The notes: generated by a model not told the origin, from the letters alone. A stretch of DNA of 64,000 bases from an uncultured Bacteroidia bacterium (GCA_902786745.1 CADADR010000001.1:186001-250000), one strand, 5' to 3'. Counted from the stretch's first letter, positions 52,466-60,459 are shown. Program-made: numbers and translations.

Positions 52466-52473
52466 TACCTTTG
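52466..52473 (+). promoter_or_regulatory. -7 box upstream of the hypothetical-ncRNA-RT unit
   Basis: TACCTTTG followed by C, 28 bases before the ATG at 52501. It is the only convincing -7 box I see before the reverse transcriptase. Confidence 0.55.
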
Positions 52474-52500
52474 CCCCACTAACCCCTAAAAAACAACACT

Positions 52501-53001
52501 ATGAGATTTCTAAAAATCGCTAAAAACATCGTTGAGACCATCGCGGAAAACGCCAAACCGCATAGCCAAACGACGCAACCATCACAGCCCTCTCAACCTC
52601 AACCCAAAGTGACGGAAGAAGAGAGAGACTGGACCGACGAACAATGGAGAGCCTATTTCAAGGAGATCCTGAACACCGAATTCCCACTCTATGGCATCAG
52701 AGAGGATGTCGCCGTGACCGACCTCGTAGGCTTCGCCAACGACGAGTTTCAACTCTATAAGACCCGTCCCACCCAAGCCTATAAGGCTGAATGGGGACAA
52801 CCCTATACCTTCCTCCTACAACAGGCAGGCATACCAAAAGGCGTAGTCATGCTCGGCAAAGGCCATAGCCACGACAGCAACGTGAAGTATCTGATTGCCC
52901 GCATGTATGCCAAGAAAATGGGCATCCCCTACATCAACTTCTACACGCAGATGCCCAACGAACGCGACTATGTCATCAGCCGCATCCGTAAATTCCTGTA
53001 A
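52501..53001 (+). CDS. Hypothetical protein upstream of the reverse transcriptase
   Basis: 166 residues, no signal peptide. An amphipathic N-terminus (RFLKIAKNIVETIAENAK), a Gln/Ser/Pro linker (residues 20-36) and a compact C-terminal domain (about 45-166) with AEWGQPYTFLLQQAGIPKGVVMLGKGHSHD and IPYINFYTQMPNERDYVISRI. The order of an acidic residue, a strand and a Lys-containing strand faintly recalls degenerate PD-(D/E)xK folds, but I would not call it a nuclease. I do not recognise the family. It ends 11 bases before the structured RNA candidate and shares its promoter with it and the reverse transcriptase. Confidence 0.7.
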   Translation: MRFLKIAKNIVETIAENAKPHSQTTQPSQPSQPQPKVTEEERDWTDEQWRAYFKEILNTEFPLYGIREDVAVTDLVGFANDEFQLYKTRPTQAYKAEWGQPYTFLLQQAGIPKGVVMLGKGHSHDSNVKYLIARMYAKKMGIPYINFYTQMPNERDYVISRIRKFL

Positions 53002-53012
53002 CCATCAAGAAT

Positions 53013-53151
53013 AGGAAAAAGGGGATGCAGCAGTGCTGCGCCTGCCGAAAGAGGCAGCCTTGCCACGAAAGGACGGTTTTGCAGGCAACCCGACAAGGTA
53101 CCCTCTCGTGATCCGCAATTTTGCGGATTCAAAATCTTTCCCCTTTTTCCT
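53013..53151 (+). ncRNA. Candidate structured RNA associated with the reverse transcriptase
   Basis: A 13-base segment (AGGAAAAAGGGGA, 53013-53025) is exactly complementary to 53139-53151. Inside this closing stem lie GCAGCA..TGCTGC (53027-53039), CTGCC-GAAAGA-GGCAG (53042-53057), an outer CCTTG/CAAGG pair (53058-53098) with TTGCC/GGCAA within it, and an 8-bp hairpin ATCCGCAA-TT-TTGCGGAT (53111-53128). The layout, a long inverted pair enclosing several hairpins 5' of a reverse transcriptase gene, is that of retron RNAs (a1/a2 stem, msr, msd) and of the RNAs of some defence reverse transcriptases. No transcript evidence is available, and it could instead be a compound intergenic repeat. Confidence 0.5.
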
Positions 53152-53169
53152 TTCATTGCTTATTATACC

Positions 53170-54450
53170 ATGAATTTGACACGAGACACGGGTTTTAATC
53201 CCCCCTGCCCCCTTAAAAGGGGGAGTTGCCCCGTGTCTCGTGTCTCTGTTATCACCCAACTGACCCAACAAGAGACCTGGGAAGAGTTTCTCGCCTACCG
53301 CCTCCAGAAAGGCCGCCTCAATTGGCATGAGTTCGACGAAGCTGATGCCTTCGTCGAACAACAGCAGTATTTGCCTCTGGCCTTGAGAATCGCACAAGGC
53401 GAAGGTCTGGGTATACCAACCAAGAAACTGGTCAACAAGATGGGCTCAGGAAAGAAACGCGTGGTGTATAGCTTTGCAGACGATGAGATGCTCGTTCTCA
53501 AACTTATCGCCTTCCTGCTCTATAAGTACGACGACCGCTTGGCTCCCAACTGCTACGCCTTCCGCCGTGGACTCAAGGCGTATGATGCCATCTTCAAACT
53601 CAACAAGGCCATACATGGTCAACAGATGTGGGCCTACAAACTCGACATTCACGACTATTTCAACTCCATCGACATCGACATACTGTTGCCCCTACTCAAG
53701 GAGATGCTCGACGACGACCCGCCACTTTATGGATTCTTCGAACAGATGCTGACCAACCCCAATGTTTCCTTCAACAAGACCATTATAGAAGAACGCCATG
53801 GCGTGATGGCAGGCACACCCACCTCGCCATTCCTTGCTGATGTGTATCTAAACGAGGTCGACCATTATTTCCATGACGCCAACGTCATTTATGCCCGTTA
53901 TTCCGACGACATCATCATGTTTGCGCCTGACTATGACACGCTCCAACAATACAAAGAGAAGATGTGCCATTTTTTGGCACAGTATCATTTGGAGGTCAAC
54001 CCCGACAAGGAAAAAGTATATTCGCCTGACGAAGCCTATGAGTTTTTGGGATTCAAATGCCATGGCCACGACATCGATATCTCGGAGGCGACCAAGCGTA
54101 AGATGAAAGGCAAAATCAAAAGGCAAGCCAATGCCCTGTTGCGTTGGAAAAACAAGAACGGCATGGAAGCCGAAAAGGCGATGAAAGCCTTAATCAATTA
54201 CTTCAACCGTAAGTTTTTCGAAAGCGACGACCCAGAGAACCTCACCTGGTCGCGGTGGTTCTTTCCTGTCATCAACCAAACGGATGGCTTGAAGGAAATC
54301 GACCGTTACCTGCAGCAGTACATCCGTTTCCTGAGCATAGGAAGACACAACAAGACGAACTACAGGGTCGATTATGCCCAACTGAAGGCACTAGGGTATA
54401 GGAGTTTGGTAAATGAATACTATAAGTTTAAAGAAATTGACCGTTTATAG
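53170..54450 (+). CDS. Reverse transcriptase (RVT_1), not group II intron type
   Basis: 426 residues from the first ATG. RT motifs in order: a template-grip region FADDEMLVLKLIAFLLYKYDDRLAPNCYAFRRG (about 102-134), motif A YKLDIHDYFNSID (first catalytic Asp at 159), GTPTSPFLADVYLNEVD (215-231), the catalytic YSDD at 244-247 and NPDKEKV followed by YEFLGFKCHG. There is no maturase X domain, HNH endonuclease or protease, so it is not a mobile-intron or retroviral enzyme; the short form and GTPTSP fit retron or unknown-group defence RTs. The classic retron VTG and NAxxH motifs are not evident. The first 25 codons are covered by a palindromic repeat (53178-53244), so the true start may be the GTG at 53233. 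The stop lies inside another palindrome. Confidence 0.88.
   Translation: MNLTRDTGFNPPCPLKRGSCPVSRVSVITQLTQQETWEEFLAYRLQKGRLNWHEFDEADAFVEQQQYLPLALRIAQGEGLGIPTKKLVNKMGSGKKRVVYSFADDEMLVLKLIAFLLYKYDDRLAPNCYAFRRGLKAYDAIFKLNKAIHGQQMWAYKLDIHDYFNSIDIDILLPLLKEMLDDDPPLYGFFEQMLTNPNVSFNKTIIEERHGVMAGTPTSPFLADVYLNEVDHYFHDANVIYARYSDDIIMFAPDYDTLQQYKEKMCHFLAQYHLEVNPDKEKVYSPDEAYEFLGFKCHGHDIDISEATKRKMKGKIKRQANALLRWKNKNGMEAEKAMKALINYFNRKFFESDDPENLTWSRWFFPVINQTDGLKEIDRYLQQYIRFLSIGRHNKTNYRVDYAQLKALGYRSLVNEYYKFKEIDRL
53178..53244. repeat. 67-bp inverted repeat over the reverse transcriptase start
   Basis: Perfect 15-bp arms (GACACGAGACACGGG / CCCGTGTCTCGTGTC, 53178-53192 and 53230-53244) enclose CCCCCTT-AA-AAGGGGG (53208-53223). 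The translated core (PPCPLKRG) is of the kind often produced when an intergenic repeat is read as protein. Confidence 0.8.
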
Positions 54451-54504
54451 ATTCCTATCCTTCGCACTTGCCCTTATAGGAATGACATAAACGGTCAATT
54501 TCTT
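54431..54504. repeat. 74-bp palindromic element between RT and lutB (copy B)
   Basis: Perfect 18-bp arms (AAGAAATTGACCGTTTAT / ATAAACGGTCAATTTCTT, 54431-54448 and 54487-54504), with core AGATTCC...GGAATGAC. Its reverse complement matches the palindrome at 43582 in arms and core. It supplies the last seven codons of the reverse transcriptase and ends one base before the stop codon of the convergent lutB. Confidence 0.88.
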
Positions 54505-56318: not shown

Positions 56319-56345
56319 TTTTTCTGCTGTTGATAATTCGATTCG

Positions 56346-56353
56346 CAAAATTA
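56346..56353 (-). promoter_or_regulatory. -7 box for rpiB-lutB
   Basis: TAATTTTG followed by C on the minus strand, 27 bases before the ATG at 56318. Confidence 0.5.
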
Positions 56354-56399
56354 CATAATTTCGTCACGCGCCACCTTTCTATCCCACTATTTCTGAAAG

Positions 56400-56870
56400 A
56401 CTTACCCGCTTACAAAACCTCAACAACTATAAACTAATAAATTGATTATCAATATAATATTAAGTTATCAACACTATTTCTGTTGAAAACTTTTTCATTC
56501 TGGTCGACAAAAACAGGCATGAAATTAATCAACAATTTATCGACCCATTCAAACGAAAAAATCAACATCATTTCAAAAAAATGGGGTCGTTTTTATCCAA
56601 TTTTTCATTTTTCAACGGATATACAAAAAAGCATAAATAAGGCTGAAAAATAAAACCTTATTAATTTCAGCCATGCCTACCTCAAATCAAAAATCATTAA
56701 TCCAAGAACTATTTTGAAAAGTTTTCAACTAATTCACAAGCTTATCAACATCCGTATCATTCTTCAATTAATTTGAAATTTAAAAATTAAAAAATGAAAT
56801 ATTGATAATTGCCTTGTTGAAAACTCCGGATGTTTTTTCAGTCGAATCAGACCAGAGGTATCGCTATTCC
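56400..56870. other. Candidate replication origin: AT-rich gap with DnaA-box-like cluster
   Basis: This 590-bp gap between divergent genes contains no open frame worth calling. It has two exact TTATCAACA (56465-56473, 56742-56750), two exact TGTTGAAAA, the reverse of TTTTCAACA (56481-56489, 56815-56823), and TTTTCAACT (56722-56730). All are one or two changes from the DnaA box TTATCCACA. There is a 50-base, nearly all A/T stretch (56761-56810) and an isolated 8-bp hairpin GGCTGAAA / TTTCAGCC (56641-56672). This is what a bacterial oriC looks like, but gene orientation on the left side does not support it, and dnaA/dnaN are not nearby. Confidence 0.45.
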
Positions 56871-56882
56871 ATGAAAAATACC

Positions 56883-56890
56883 TAATTTTG
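56883..56890 (+). promoter_or_regulatory. -7 box for the MORN-repeat gene
   Basis: TAATTTTG, 19 bases before the ATG at 56910. Confidence 0.45.
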
Positions 56891-56909
56891 ACCCGAATTT
56901 TGAACGTAA

Positions 56910-58424: not shown

Positions 58425-59320
58425 AAAAGATTCCCTATTTAAAACCAGGTTCAAAGGTCGCTATTGTAGCCCCGGCGCGAAAGGTCAAGCCTAACGAGAT
58501 GTTGTTTGCCATCAATTGGCTTAAAGAGCATGGTTTCGTTCCCGTTTATGACGACAGGTTGTATTCCATCGACCATATCTTTGCGGGTAGCGATGAGTTT
58601 CGTGCGGCTGTCATGCAAGAATACATGGATAACGATGACATCGATGCCATTTGGTTTGCCCGAGCTGGTTATGGATGCATCCGCATCATTGACAAACTCG
58701 ACTTCAGCCATTTTCTTTCCCATCCGAAGTGGATTATAGGCTTCAGTGATGCGACGGTATTCCATGGCAAATTGAGTCGTTTGGGCTGTCCAAGCCTTCA
58801 TGCTTCCATGCCGTTTTTCTTGGAGCACAAGACCCCAGAGGCCTTACAGTCGCTTTATGATGCCTTGACGGGCAGCACCCTATATTATGAATTTCCAACG
58901 CATCCGCTTAATCGTTTTGGTGAGGTTGAAGGCGAAATCGTTGGTGGCAATCTTTCCGTTATGTATGGCATGATGGGTTCTGATACCTTCCCTGAAACGG
59001 ATGGGAAGATACTCTTTATAGAAGATGTGGATGAATACATCTATCATATCGACCGCATGATGCATGCCTTGAAACGAGCAGGCATACTATCGCATCTGAA
59101 GGCTCTCGTTGTGGGTGGTTTGACACAAATTCACGACAACACCGATCCTTTCGGAAAGACCGTCGAAGAAGTGATTGCCGAAGCCGTCAGCGACTACGAT
59201 TACCCCTTGTGTTTCGGTTTTCCTGCAGGGCATTTTTCCGACAATAGATCGATTGTTTTCGGCCAAAAAGTAAAGTTAGTATTAGACAAGGACAATAGTC
59301 ATTTCTCCTTGGCAATTTGA
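58421..59320 (+). CDS. LD-carboxypeptidase (peptidase family S66)
   Basis: 299 residues, normal for the LdcA family. The nucleophile Ser is in WIIGFSDATVFHGKL (near residue 107), the Glu of the triad in ILFIEDVDEYIYHIDRM (about 200) and the His in CFGFPAGHFSDNRSIVFGQ (about 276). The family cuts the L-Lys/DAP-D-Ala bond of murein tetrapeptides during cell-wall recycling in the cytoplasm; microcin-resistance homologues exist. It starts within the ATGA at the end of the MORN gene. Its last 22 bases overlap the end of the convergent CARF nuclease gene. Confidence 0.92.
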   Translation: MKKIPYLKPGSKVAIVAPARKVKPNEMLFAINWLKEHGFVPVYDDRLYSIDHIFAGSDEFRAAVMQEYMDNDDIDAIWFARAGYGCIRIIDKLDFSHFLSHPKWIIGFSDATVFHGKLSRLGCPSLHASMPFFLEHKTPEALQSLYDALTGSTLYYEFPTHPLNRFGEVEGEIVGGNLSVMYGMMGSDTFPETDGKILFIEDVDEYIYHIDRMMHALKRAGILSHLKALVVGGLTQIHDNTDPFGKTVEEVIAEAVSDYDYPLCFGFPAGHFSDNRSIVFGQKVKLVLDKDNSHFSLAI

Positions 59321-60459
59321 TTCATCTCTTTCAAAATATGCTTTAAATTCTCTGGCTTGGTCAAATTAAGCCAATCGCAGAAGGTGATGCCCATGTATTT
59401 GGCGGTCTTTTTCCAAACGCCCTTGTGGTCTTTCTTCAGCGAGAAGATGTAGGAATTGCTAGTGCCAAGCAGCACCTCCTTCAGGGCACAGACCTTATAC
59501 ACGATCTCGTTGAAGAGGCTCTCACTCGTAACCCCGGTCTTACACTCGATGACAAACAGCTTGTTGGCCTTGATGAAACACACATCCAATTCGTTGTTGT
59601 GCTTGATGACGCCATTGGAGATGTGCACGCCCATGGCGATGTCATCGGGCTTGAGCACCTCCTTGATGAGCGCATACACATATTCCTCAAACCATCCTCC
59701 TGTGAGGTATTCCATCTCGTAGCTTTGGAGCGAGTCGCTTTGCTCAGGCTTGAAACCGATGTAGTTCAAGAACTTGCTGAGGGCAGGAATGGCAGTCATA
59801 TTGTCCTTGGTGGGCTTTTCTGCTTCAGCGATGCGAAGGTAGTTCCAATTGCGGTACCTCTCGCGTAAGGCAGTCATCACCTCATAGTCACCACGCCCCA
59901 ACAAGCTCTGCGAAAACATGGTGAACAGATGCTGCGAGAATGACGTTTCCTTCACCTGTTTGCGTGGCTCATCAACATCGCTCTGCAGCCCGTATAGCCC
60001 GAAGTACTCCTTCAAAGTCATCCTGTGCTTGATGGGGAAGACCTCATCGTCGTCGTCGTAGATGCTGTGGTCGAAGATGGTCTTCACGATCTGGTTCTCA
60101 CGCGTCTGAGTATAGAAAAACAGGGTGTTGAACTCCTCAAACACATGCTGCACCGAGAGGGTCATGTAACGGTTGCCTCCCGCCAGATTCAGGTAATACT
60201 GGGTCTTGCCATCCAACTCGTTTTTGATGGTACGGCAGATGTGCTCATAGAGGAAATTCTCTTGAAAACGCTTTACGATGATGCGCTGCACATGGTTTTC
60301 GTCCACCTCCAGCTGTTGGGTGAGGAGTTGGATGCAGTCGGCTTCCTCTTCGGGAGAGATGAACAGCAATCCGTCGCCTTCTTCATAGAATTCCTTGGTG
60401 AAAAGGTAAGCCGGCAACGGGTTGCTTTTGTCGATGATATTGACGATGGTTTTTGACAT
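59299..60459 (-). CDS. CARF-domain nuclease of the Card1/Can2 (DUF1887) type
   Basis: 386 residues. Residues 1-145 form a CARF domain: a strand start TIVNIID, and the ligand-loop NLAGGNRYMTLS at 91-102, equivalent to the NxTGGTKxM loop that holds cyclic tetra-adenylate. The C-terminal part begins YLTGGWFEEYVYALIKEV (251-268), almost letter for letter as in Treponema Card1, followed by the PD-(D/E)xK core NELDV (Glu290, Asp292) and VIECKTG (Glu305, Lys307). Card1/Can2 enzymes are dimers activated by cyclic oligoadenylate from type III CRISPR complexes and cut single-stranded nucleic acid or nicked DNA. There are no cas genes or repeats in this window. Nearest genes are housekeeping, so the effector is isolated here. 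Confidence 0.9.
   Translation of the reverse strand: MSKTIVNIIDKSNPLPAYLFTKEFYEEGDGLLFISPEEEADCIQLLTQQLEVDENHVQRIIVKRFQENFLYEHICRTIKNELDGKTQYYLNLAGGNRYMTLSVQHVFEEFNTLFFYTQTRENQIVKTIFDHSIYDDDDEVFPIKHRMTLKEYFGLYGLQSDVDEPRKQVKETSFSQHLFTMFSQSLLGRGDYEVMTALRERYRNWNYLRIAEAEKPTKDNMTAIPALSKFLNYIGFKPEQSDSLQSYEMEYLTGGWFEEYVYALIKEVLKPDDIAMGVHISNGVIKHNNELDVCFIKANKLFVIECKTGVTSESLFNEIVYKVCALKEVLLGTSNSYIFSLKKDHKGVWKKTAKYMGITFCDWLNLTKPENLKHILKEMNQIAKEK

What the first reader, a model, noticed from the sequence alone, without database searches (positions are those of the whole stretch)
52466..54504. Possible uncharacterised reverse-transcriptase unit: hypothetical gene, structured RNA, RT
A single promoter box precedes a hypothetical gene (52501-53001), then a 139-base segment closed by a perfect 13-bp stem, then a reverse transcriptase with YSDD and GTPTSP motifs and no intron, endonuclease or transposition parts. 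This order resembles retrons and the RNA-using defence reverse transcriptases, but the RT lacks clear VTG and NAxxH motifs and the partner protein is unfamiliar. It could be a new group of RT system, possibly antiviral.
Basis: partly seen in the sequence, partly recalled or inferred. Interest (0 to 1): 0.8.

Follow-up and report, generated by a model that had tools for sequence, protein, structure and literature searches.

The report
Uncharacterised UG26 reverse-transcriptase cassette with ncRNA
This is a conserved three-part bacterial cassette (a small helper protein, a folded RNA and an enzyme that copies RNA into DNA) whose enzyme and RNA are each catalogued but of unknown function; showing that they belong together makes their joint function directly testable.

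Summary
It is not a new RT group. The RT is PADLOC RT_UG26 (550 bits) and the segment is Rfam RT-5 RNA (81 bits; gathering 46). The unit is real. In 173 genomes of the host family, RT and RNA occur in the same 24 genomes. The helper gene is in 23 of those (the 24th contig ends there) and in none of the other 149. The RNA recurs beside UG26 RTs in other Bacteroidales and in the family of an Oscillospiraceae genome (68/68 loci modelled), with overwhelming covariation and a pseudoknot. The helper is present at 60 of 66 decidable loci. It is a predicted PD-(D/E)XK-like pseudo-nuclease with an N-terminal amphipathic helix. Neighbours are mostly housekeeping genes; no defence islands were seen. Most likely mechanism, inferred: a class-2 UG (DRT2/3a/9/10-like) RNP in which RT-5 RNA templates short, probably repetitive cDNA that controls the helper protein. 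A template A-B-A' signal (window ACG-AAAGG-ACG) is only suggestive. Retron membership is not supported. Antiviral role is plausible but unproven.

The parts
52466..52473 (+). -7 promoter box TAnnTTTG (TACCTTTG) of Bacteroidales type, 35 nt before the start codon
   Evidence: sequence; same box at 30-45 nt in 13 of 21 loci compared
52501..53001 (+). UP: helper protein, 166 aa; N-terminal amphipathic helix (about 1-19), P/Q-rich linker, then an alpha-beta-beta-beta-alpha-beta domain (43-166) of PD-(D/E)XK (COG2852/Vsr-like) type with the catalytic residues lost
   Evidence: dN/dS about 0.15-0.2
53013..53151 (+). RT-5 ncRNA including its closing stem
   Evidence: RF03026 at 53036-53141, 81.3 bits; covariation
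53013..53025 (+). P0 closing stem, 5' strand (pairs with 53139-53151); mostly outside the Rfam match
   Evidence: all 11 modelled pairs with both-side changes
53139..53151 (+). P0 closing stem, 3' strand, followed by a U-rich tract
53027..53039 (+). P1 hairpin GCAGC-AGT-GCTGC
   Evidence: covariation
53040..53045 (+). pseudoknot 5' strand GCCUGC, pairing with the P3 loop GCAGGC (53081-53086)
   Evidence: 97% of cells paired, 3 of 6 pairs with both-side changes
53050..53053 (+). P4b 5' strand AGAG, pairing with CUCU 53103-53106
   Evidence: 100% of cells paired in 25 sequences; covarying pair 50-106
53057..53064 (+). P4 5' strand, pairing with 53092-53099
   Evidence: 6 of 8 pairs with both-side changes
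53065..53074 (+). variable internal loop ACGAAAGGAC; candidate cDNA template (A-B-A' = ACG-AAAGG-ACG, 53065-53075)
   Evidence: only weak statistical support
53075..53090 (+). P3 hairpin GGUU-UUGCAGGC-AACC with near-invariant loop
53111..53128 (+). P5 hairpin AUCCGC-AAUUUU-GCGGAU, followed by conserved UCAAAA
   Evidence: 6 of 6 pairs with both-side changes
53178..53244 (+). palindromic insertion (15-bp perfect arms) between RNA and RT that lengthens the RT ORF at its N-terminus
   Evidence: the repeat-derived N-terminus also matches in close relatives such as L002, L020, L021
53170..54450 (+). UG26 reverse transcriptase (conserved part about 53245-54435; YSDD 53899-53910)
   Evidence: RT_UG26 E 7e-166, 549.8 bits; model pLDDT 93; dN/dS about 0.1

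Best explanation
The locus is a three-part UG26 reverse-transcriptase system: helper protein UP, RT-5 ncRNA and RT. Shown computationally: the RT belongs to UG26; the segment is an RT-5 RNA with a closing stem, five further helices and a pseudoknot; RNA and RT always go together; UP goes with them in most lineages. Inferred: UP and the RNA are transcribed from the 52466 promoter and the RNA is released as a folded unit. The RT binds it through the pseudoknotted core and the near-invariant UUGCAGGC loop, and copies a short internal stretch into cDNA, probably iteratively as in the class-2 UG systems DRT3a, DRT9 and DRT10. The best template candidate is the only short, rapidly varying internal loop, 53065-53075, which predicts (CCTTTCGT)n cDNA. 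UP is probably not a nuclease. Its fold keeps the PD-(D/E)XK core but not the catalytic residues, and its N-terminus is an amphipathic helix, so it more likely acts as a membrane-associated effector or adaptor held in check or activated by the RT-RNA-cDNA complex, in the position that SLATT holds in DRT10. The biological role is probably anti-phage, but the genomic setting leaves room for another role. Rough confidences: unit and family identity 0.95; RNA-templated cDNA 0.6; repetitive cDNA from the named loop 0.3; antiviral role 0.5.
For: RT_UG26 550 bits, next best UG groups UG17 (=DRT10), UG27, UG4, Drt9, Drt3a, and much the same set follows for distant UG26 RTs. RF03026 81 bits. RT and RNA in the identical 24 of 173 genomes (chance about 6e-30); UP in 23 of these and 0 of 149 others. 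RNA found once at each of 68 loci in Bacteroidales and the Oscillospiraceae-family set, with 93.5% of cells paired against 46-50% when slid and 0/500 shuffles. RNA and RT persist together even when trkA-trkH (L066/L055) or another gene (L056) sits between them, so the RNA is not merely the RT's 5' leader. UP homologues with 'MGFLSKLFGG'-type N-termini in 27 of 29 decidable Oscillospiraceae-set loci. UP fold: core pLDDT mostly above 90, first PDB hits TnsA, a PD-(D/E)XK nuclease, at E 0.1 and probability 0.85. Amphipathic N-terminus: moment 0.66 in the window, 77% of 52 homologues P<0.1. RT model resembles group IIC intron RT (TM 0.78), G2L4 and DRT9 (0.62). Purifying selection. Class-2 UG RTs studied so far use ncRNA templates for tandem-repeat cDNA (PMC12632851, PMC13174585).
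Against: No cDNA, expression or phage data. The A-B-A' repeat is not significant in the bare loop (P 0.15-0.57), significant with one flanking base (P 0.001), but 0.02-0.19 after thinning related sequences. Six loci lack UP, so UP cannot be essential everywhere. Flanking genes are mostly housekeeping (3 PADLOC family matches among 69 neighbour proteins; a few candidate-family and viperin-like matches among 54), unlike typical defence islands. No close relative in viral contigs.
Confidence: 0.6

Rival explanations
1. A resident chromosomal RT system with a housekeeping or stress role (for example making a short repeated DNA or modifying DNA ends) and not anti-phage defence. Same RNP mechanism, different purpose.
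For: Neighbours are metabolic or informational genes. In 12 species of the genus the downstream gene is shared, and in the window it lies about 2 kb from a likely replication origin. No close relative in phages or plasmids (none at 60% identity or more) nor in viral contigs.
Against: Patchy distribution: 24 of 173 genomes in the family, 37 of 395 in the Oscillospiraceae set, 1 of 396 in the phylum sample, many different integration contexts, and the nearest UG profile relatives with a known function are antiviral.
Confidence: 0.25
2. A retron: the segment is msr-msd with P0 as the a1/a2 stem, making branched msDNA; UP is the effector.
For: Order ncRNA-RT with an accessory gene and a closing inverted repeat around the RNA.
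Against: Motifs NAxxH and VTG each in only 4 of 74 UG26 ORFs; retron models score far below UG26; Rfam assigns RT-5 and no retron RNA family.
Confidence: 0.05
3. The RNA is a cis-regulatory leader (attenuator or riboswitch-like) of the RT gene and is not used by the enzyme.
For: It lies directly before the RT in most loci and ends in a U-rich stem like a terminator.
Against: RNA is conserved when other genes separate it from the RT: trkA-trkH, about 3 kb, in G773, and another ORF in L056. The conserved pseudoknot with invariant loop suggests a protein-binding RNA.
Confidence: 0.06
4. UP is an active nuclease effector and the RT-RNA complex merely restrains it.
For: PD-(D/E)XK-like topology; name and weak match COG2852.
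Against: No conserved D...ExK set in 56 homologues: E is kept only in 'VELM' of many Oscillospiraceae-set members and the K is gone; the Bacteroidales forms have 'VVML' or 'IMI'.
Confidence: 0.1

Closest known systems
PADLOC RT_UG26 (DRT, unknown-group RT 26) with RTasCOG2852
   Same: RT matches the UG26 model over its whole length; UP matches RTasCOG2852 weakly in 20 of 23 homologues
   Different: Nothing functional was found published for UG26 in the library searched; the f111 form of UP falls below the PADLOC model
Rfam RF03026 RT-5 RNA
   Same: 81.3 bits, full model, above gathering
   Different: The window and relatives have a covarying closing stem (P0) mostly outside the Rfam match, a pseudoknot GCCUGC/GCAGGC, and a fixed partner RT group
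DRT10 (UG17) and telomerase-like repeat addition
   Same: Tripartite ncRNA + small accessory protein + RT; UG17 is among the nearest RT profiles; ncRNA of similar length, 137 against 139 nt (PMC12632851)
   Different: Accessory is a PD-(D/E)XK-like pseudo-nuclease and not SLATT; gene order is accessory-ncRNA-RT; the A-B-A' template pattern is only suggestive; not in defence islands
DRT9 (UG28)
   Same: Structural similarity of the RT (TM 0.62); ncRNA partner
   Different: No conserved poly-U template tract inside the RNA; RT about 400 aa against about 490; extra protein
Retrons
   Same: ncRNA next to RT with an accessory gene
   Different: Lacks NAxxH/VTG motifs and retron profile scores

Membership tests
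UG26 RT | Full-length match to the UG26 profile, best of all RT profiles | tested here: met
   E 7e-166, residues 26-422 on 2-397 of 398; next best 114 bits
Rfam RT-5 RNA | Score above gathering threshold over the full model | tested here: met
   81.3 vs 45.7 bits, 1-104/104
RTasCOG2852 (UP) | Match to the PADLOC profile over its length | tested here: inconclusive
   E 4.5e-7, two stretches; 20 of 23 homologues hit, f111 forms do not
PD-(D/E)XK active nuclease (UP) | Catalytic D and (D/E)xK residues | tested here: not met
   not conserved in 56 homologues
Class 2 UG/DRT systems | RT groups with UG2, UG3a, UG17, UG28 | tested here: inconclusive
   nearest characterised profiles include DRT10, DRT9, Drt3a, DRT2; no tree with these families could be built here
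Class 2 UG/DRT systems | cis-encoded ncRNA | tested here: met
   68 of 68 loci
Class 2 UG/DRT systems | ncRNA templates (tandem-repeat) cDNA | not testable with these tools
   needs cDNA sequencing; A-B-A' statistics suggestive only
DRT10 | SLATT partner | tested here: not met
   partner is UP, no SLATT or other Pfam match
DRT9 | conserved poly-U template | tested here: not met
   no conserved internal U tract
Retron | NAxxH and VTG motifs in the RT | tested here: not met
   4 of 74 each
Retron | branched msDNA | not testable with these tools
   needs biochemistry
Anti-phage defence system | protection from phage | not testable with these tools
   needs plaque assays
Anti-phage defence system | location among defence genes | tested here: not met
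   3 PADLOC family matches in 69 neighbour proteins of 10 loci and few in 54 of others

The most novel reading that the evidence does not exclude
UG26 is a resident chromosomal ribonucleoprotein outside defence islands that uses RT-5 RNA as a telomerase-like template to make short tandem-repeat DNA (in this species (CCTTTCGT)n), and that signals through a membrane-tethered pseudo-nuclease, so far without any described counterpart.
Probability: 0.18. Interest if true: 0.82.

Novelty: new variant of a known kind. Interest (0 to 1): 0.55.

Why it matters
It joins two orphan entries (UG26 RT and Rfam RT-5 RNA) and a poorly described protein into one conserved machine spread across Bacteroidales and Oscillospiraceae-family gut bacteria, supplies a covariation-based RNA structure with a new closing stem and pseudoknot, and gives a specific cDNA prediction to test. 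If UG26 makes repeat DNA it would extend the DRT10/telomerase-like mechanism to another RT group with a different effector, in an unusual non-island setting.

Tried and rejected
New RT group: rejected, RT_UG26. Retron: rejected on motifs and profiles. Group II intron or DGR part: only RVT_1, no maturase domain. The stretch between P4 and P5 (UACCCUCUCGU) as template: rejected because its CUCU is paired in P4b with covariation. GUAC...GUAC repeats there: rejected by inspection, the base after each GU does not change together between clades. Enrichment of A-B-A' repeats in the variable loop: non-significant in the bare loop, suggestive with one flanking base; the post-P5 strand gave a similar P (0.03), so the signal is not specific. 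Solved relatives of UP by sequence: none. UG26 in phages, plasmids or viral contigs: only relatives below 60% identity, or nothing; the viral scans reach close relatives only, and one paper names UG26 in cold-seep viruses by myRT (PMC10504277), not checked. Literature for UG26/RT-5: no functional report found in the library; the paper I tried for the UG classification was not held.

Full report
What is there. A -7 promoter box (52466) precedes a 166-aa gene (52501-53001); 11 nt after its stop begins a 139-nt segment (53013-53151) closed by a perfect 13-bp stem; then comes a reverse transcriptase ORF (53170-54450) with YSDD and GTPTSP and no other significant Pfam domain. The surrounding 163 nt fold far better than shuffles (z -4.8). 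The first 25 or so codons of the RT ORF derive mostly from a 67-nt palindromic insertion shared only with some close relatives; the conserved RT begins near 53245.

Identity. The RT is a full-length match to PADLOC's RT_UG26 (549.8 bits; next best 114). The segment is Rfam RF03026, RT-5 RNA (81.3 bits, gathering 45.7). The 166-aa protein (UP) has no Pfam or NCBIfam match but hits PADLOC RTasCOG2852 (E 4.5e-7), as do 20 of 23 aligned homologues. So this is not a new RT group; all three parts had been seen by cataloguers, the protein only weakly.

Is it a unit? In the 173 held genomes of the host family, UG26 RT occurs in 24 genomes, RT-5 RNA in the same 24 and nowhere else, UP in 23 of them and none of the other 149; in the 24th (G502) the contig ends at the RNA. 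The chance of the RT-RNA coincidence is about 6e-30 ignoring relatedness. Outside the family, UG26 RTs were found in 10 of 393 sampled genomes of the order (the window's own included), 10 of 18 of one Bacteroidales family, and 37 of 395 of the family of an Oscillospiraceae genome. A covariance model (R1) built here found exactly one RNA at each of 68 loci. Loci not decidable are those whose contigs start near the RT (L075, L079, L086); in L055 the RNA lies about 3 kb upstream, beyond trkA-trkH (L066). UP is present at 60 of 66 decidable loci (23/23 host family, 9/9 f111, 1/1 f164, 27/29 Oscillospiraceae set, 0/4 in f121 and f117). UP and RT are under purifying selection (dN/dS about 0.15-0.2 and 0.1). 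RNA plus RT is therefore the core and UP the usual accessory.

RNA structure. On 25 diverse sequences, a structure of closing stem P0, hairpin P1, a pseudoknot GCCUGC/GCAGGC, P4b, P4, P3 and P5 has 92% of cells paired, 36 of 44 pairs with changes on both sides and 0/500 shuffles reaching it. On the 68-row alignment (fitted to the model, without the pseudoknot) 93.5% are paired against 46-50% when slid. Near-invariant unpaired bases are the P3 loop UUGCAGGC, its partner GCCUG, GU before P5 and the UCAAA after it. The short loop between P4 and P3 (window 53065-53074) varies freely.

Helper protein. AlphaFold gives a confident domain (43-166, pLDDT mostly above 90) with alpha-beta-beta-beta-alpha-beta order. 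Foldseek's first hits are TnsA, a PD-(D/E)XK nuclease, but weakly (E 0.1, probability 0.85, low TM). In many Oscillospiraceae-set homologues the core reads 'YTFY..ALVVELM..KKLR..GIPYLRFYYDH.GWWNTRSYV', like COG2852/DUF559 nucleases without the catalytic D and K; Bacteroidales forms have lost the E as well (the comparison with COG2852 motifs is from general knowledge). The N-terminus is an amphipathic helix (moment 0.66; 77% of 52 homologues stronger than 90% of their shuffles) joined by a P/Q-rich linker. A pseudo-nuclease with a membrane-seeking N-terminus is the best reading; function is inferred.

RT. Nearest UG profiles after UG26 are UG17 (DRT10), UG27, UG4, Drt9, Drt3a and, lower, Drt2, in the window and in distant UG26 members. 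The model (pLDDT 93) is most like group IIC intron RT (TM 0.78), G2L4 and DRT9. Retron motifs are absent. Characterised class-2 UG systems (DRT2, DRT3a, DRT9, DRT10) use cis-encoded ncRNAs as templates for repetitive cDNA (PMC12632851, PMC13174585). Hence the favoured mechanism: RT-5 RNA is scaffold and template.

Template search. DRT10 templates carry A-B-A' repeats. In the variable loop the window has ACG-AAAGG-ACG, predicting (CCTTTCGT)n. Over all loops the excess of 3-mer repeats is not significant in the bare loop, P 0.001 with one flanking base, and 0.02-0.19 after thinning related loops; another region gave P 0.03. This is a testable guess, not a result.

Role. Neighbours at 10 Oscillospiraceae-set and 8 Bacteroidales loci plus the window are mostly metabolic and informational genes, with few PADLOC matches; no close relatives in phage, plasmid or viral collections. 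Distribution is patchy and contexts differ, although 12 species share one downstream neighbour. Patchiness and profile kinship favour defence; the setting does not. I leave antiviral function at about even odds.

Novelty. Parts catalogued, function unreported in the library searched. New here, as far as I could check: the fixed association of UG26 with RT-5 RNA and the pseudo-nuclease in two bacterial groups, the extended RNA structure with pseudoknot, and a concrete cDNA prediction. A subscription paper may already note part of the association; it could not be read.

Noticed in passing
window 56340-56900: AT-rich intergenic stretch; together with the adjoining site at 56328 it holds all three exact TTATCAACA (DnaA-box-like) 9-mers of the window, at the minimum of cumulative GC skew: likely chromosomal replication origin about 2 kb from the RT.
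   Followed up: partly
window 59299-60459 (-): CARF plus PD-(D/E)XK protein, Card1/Can2-like, with no CRISPR-like direct repeats in 56.3-64 kb.
   Followed up: partly
window 53178-53244: Palindromic element with 15-bp perfect arms inserted between RNA and RT, read through in frame as an RT N-terminal extension; the repeat-derived N-terminus also matches in close relatives such as L002, L020 and L021.
   Followed up: partly
window 54431-54504: Long inverted repeat around and after the RT stop (AAGAAATTGACCGTTTAT ... ATAAACGGTCAATTTCTT), terminator or small mobile element.
   Followed up: no
L066 / L055 (genome G773): trkA-trkH lie between the RT-5 RNA and the RT, so RNA and RT stay in one genome although about 3 kb apart.
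   Followed up: yes
L056, L073, L074: A conserved putative lipoprotein ORF ('MKCKILFAFFIALMLGTVSCRDML...') sits between RT-5 RNA and RT in one Bacteroidales lineage.
   Followed up: no
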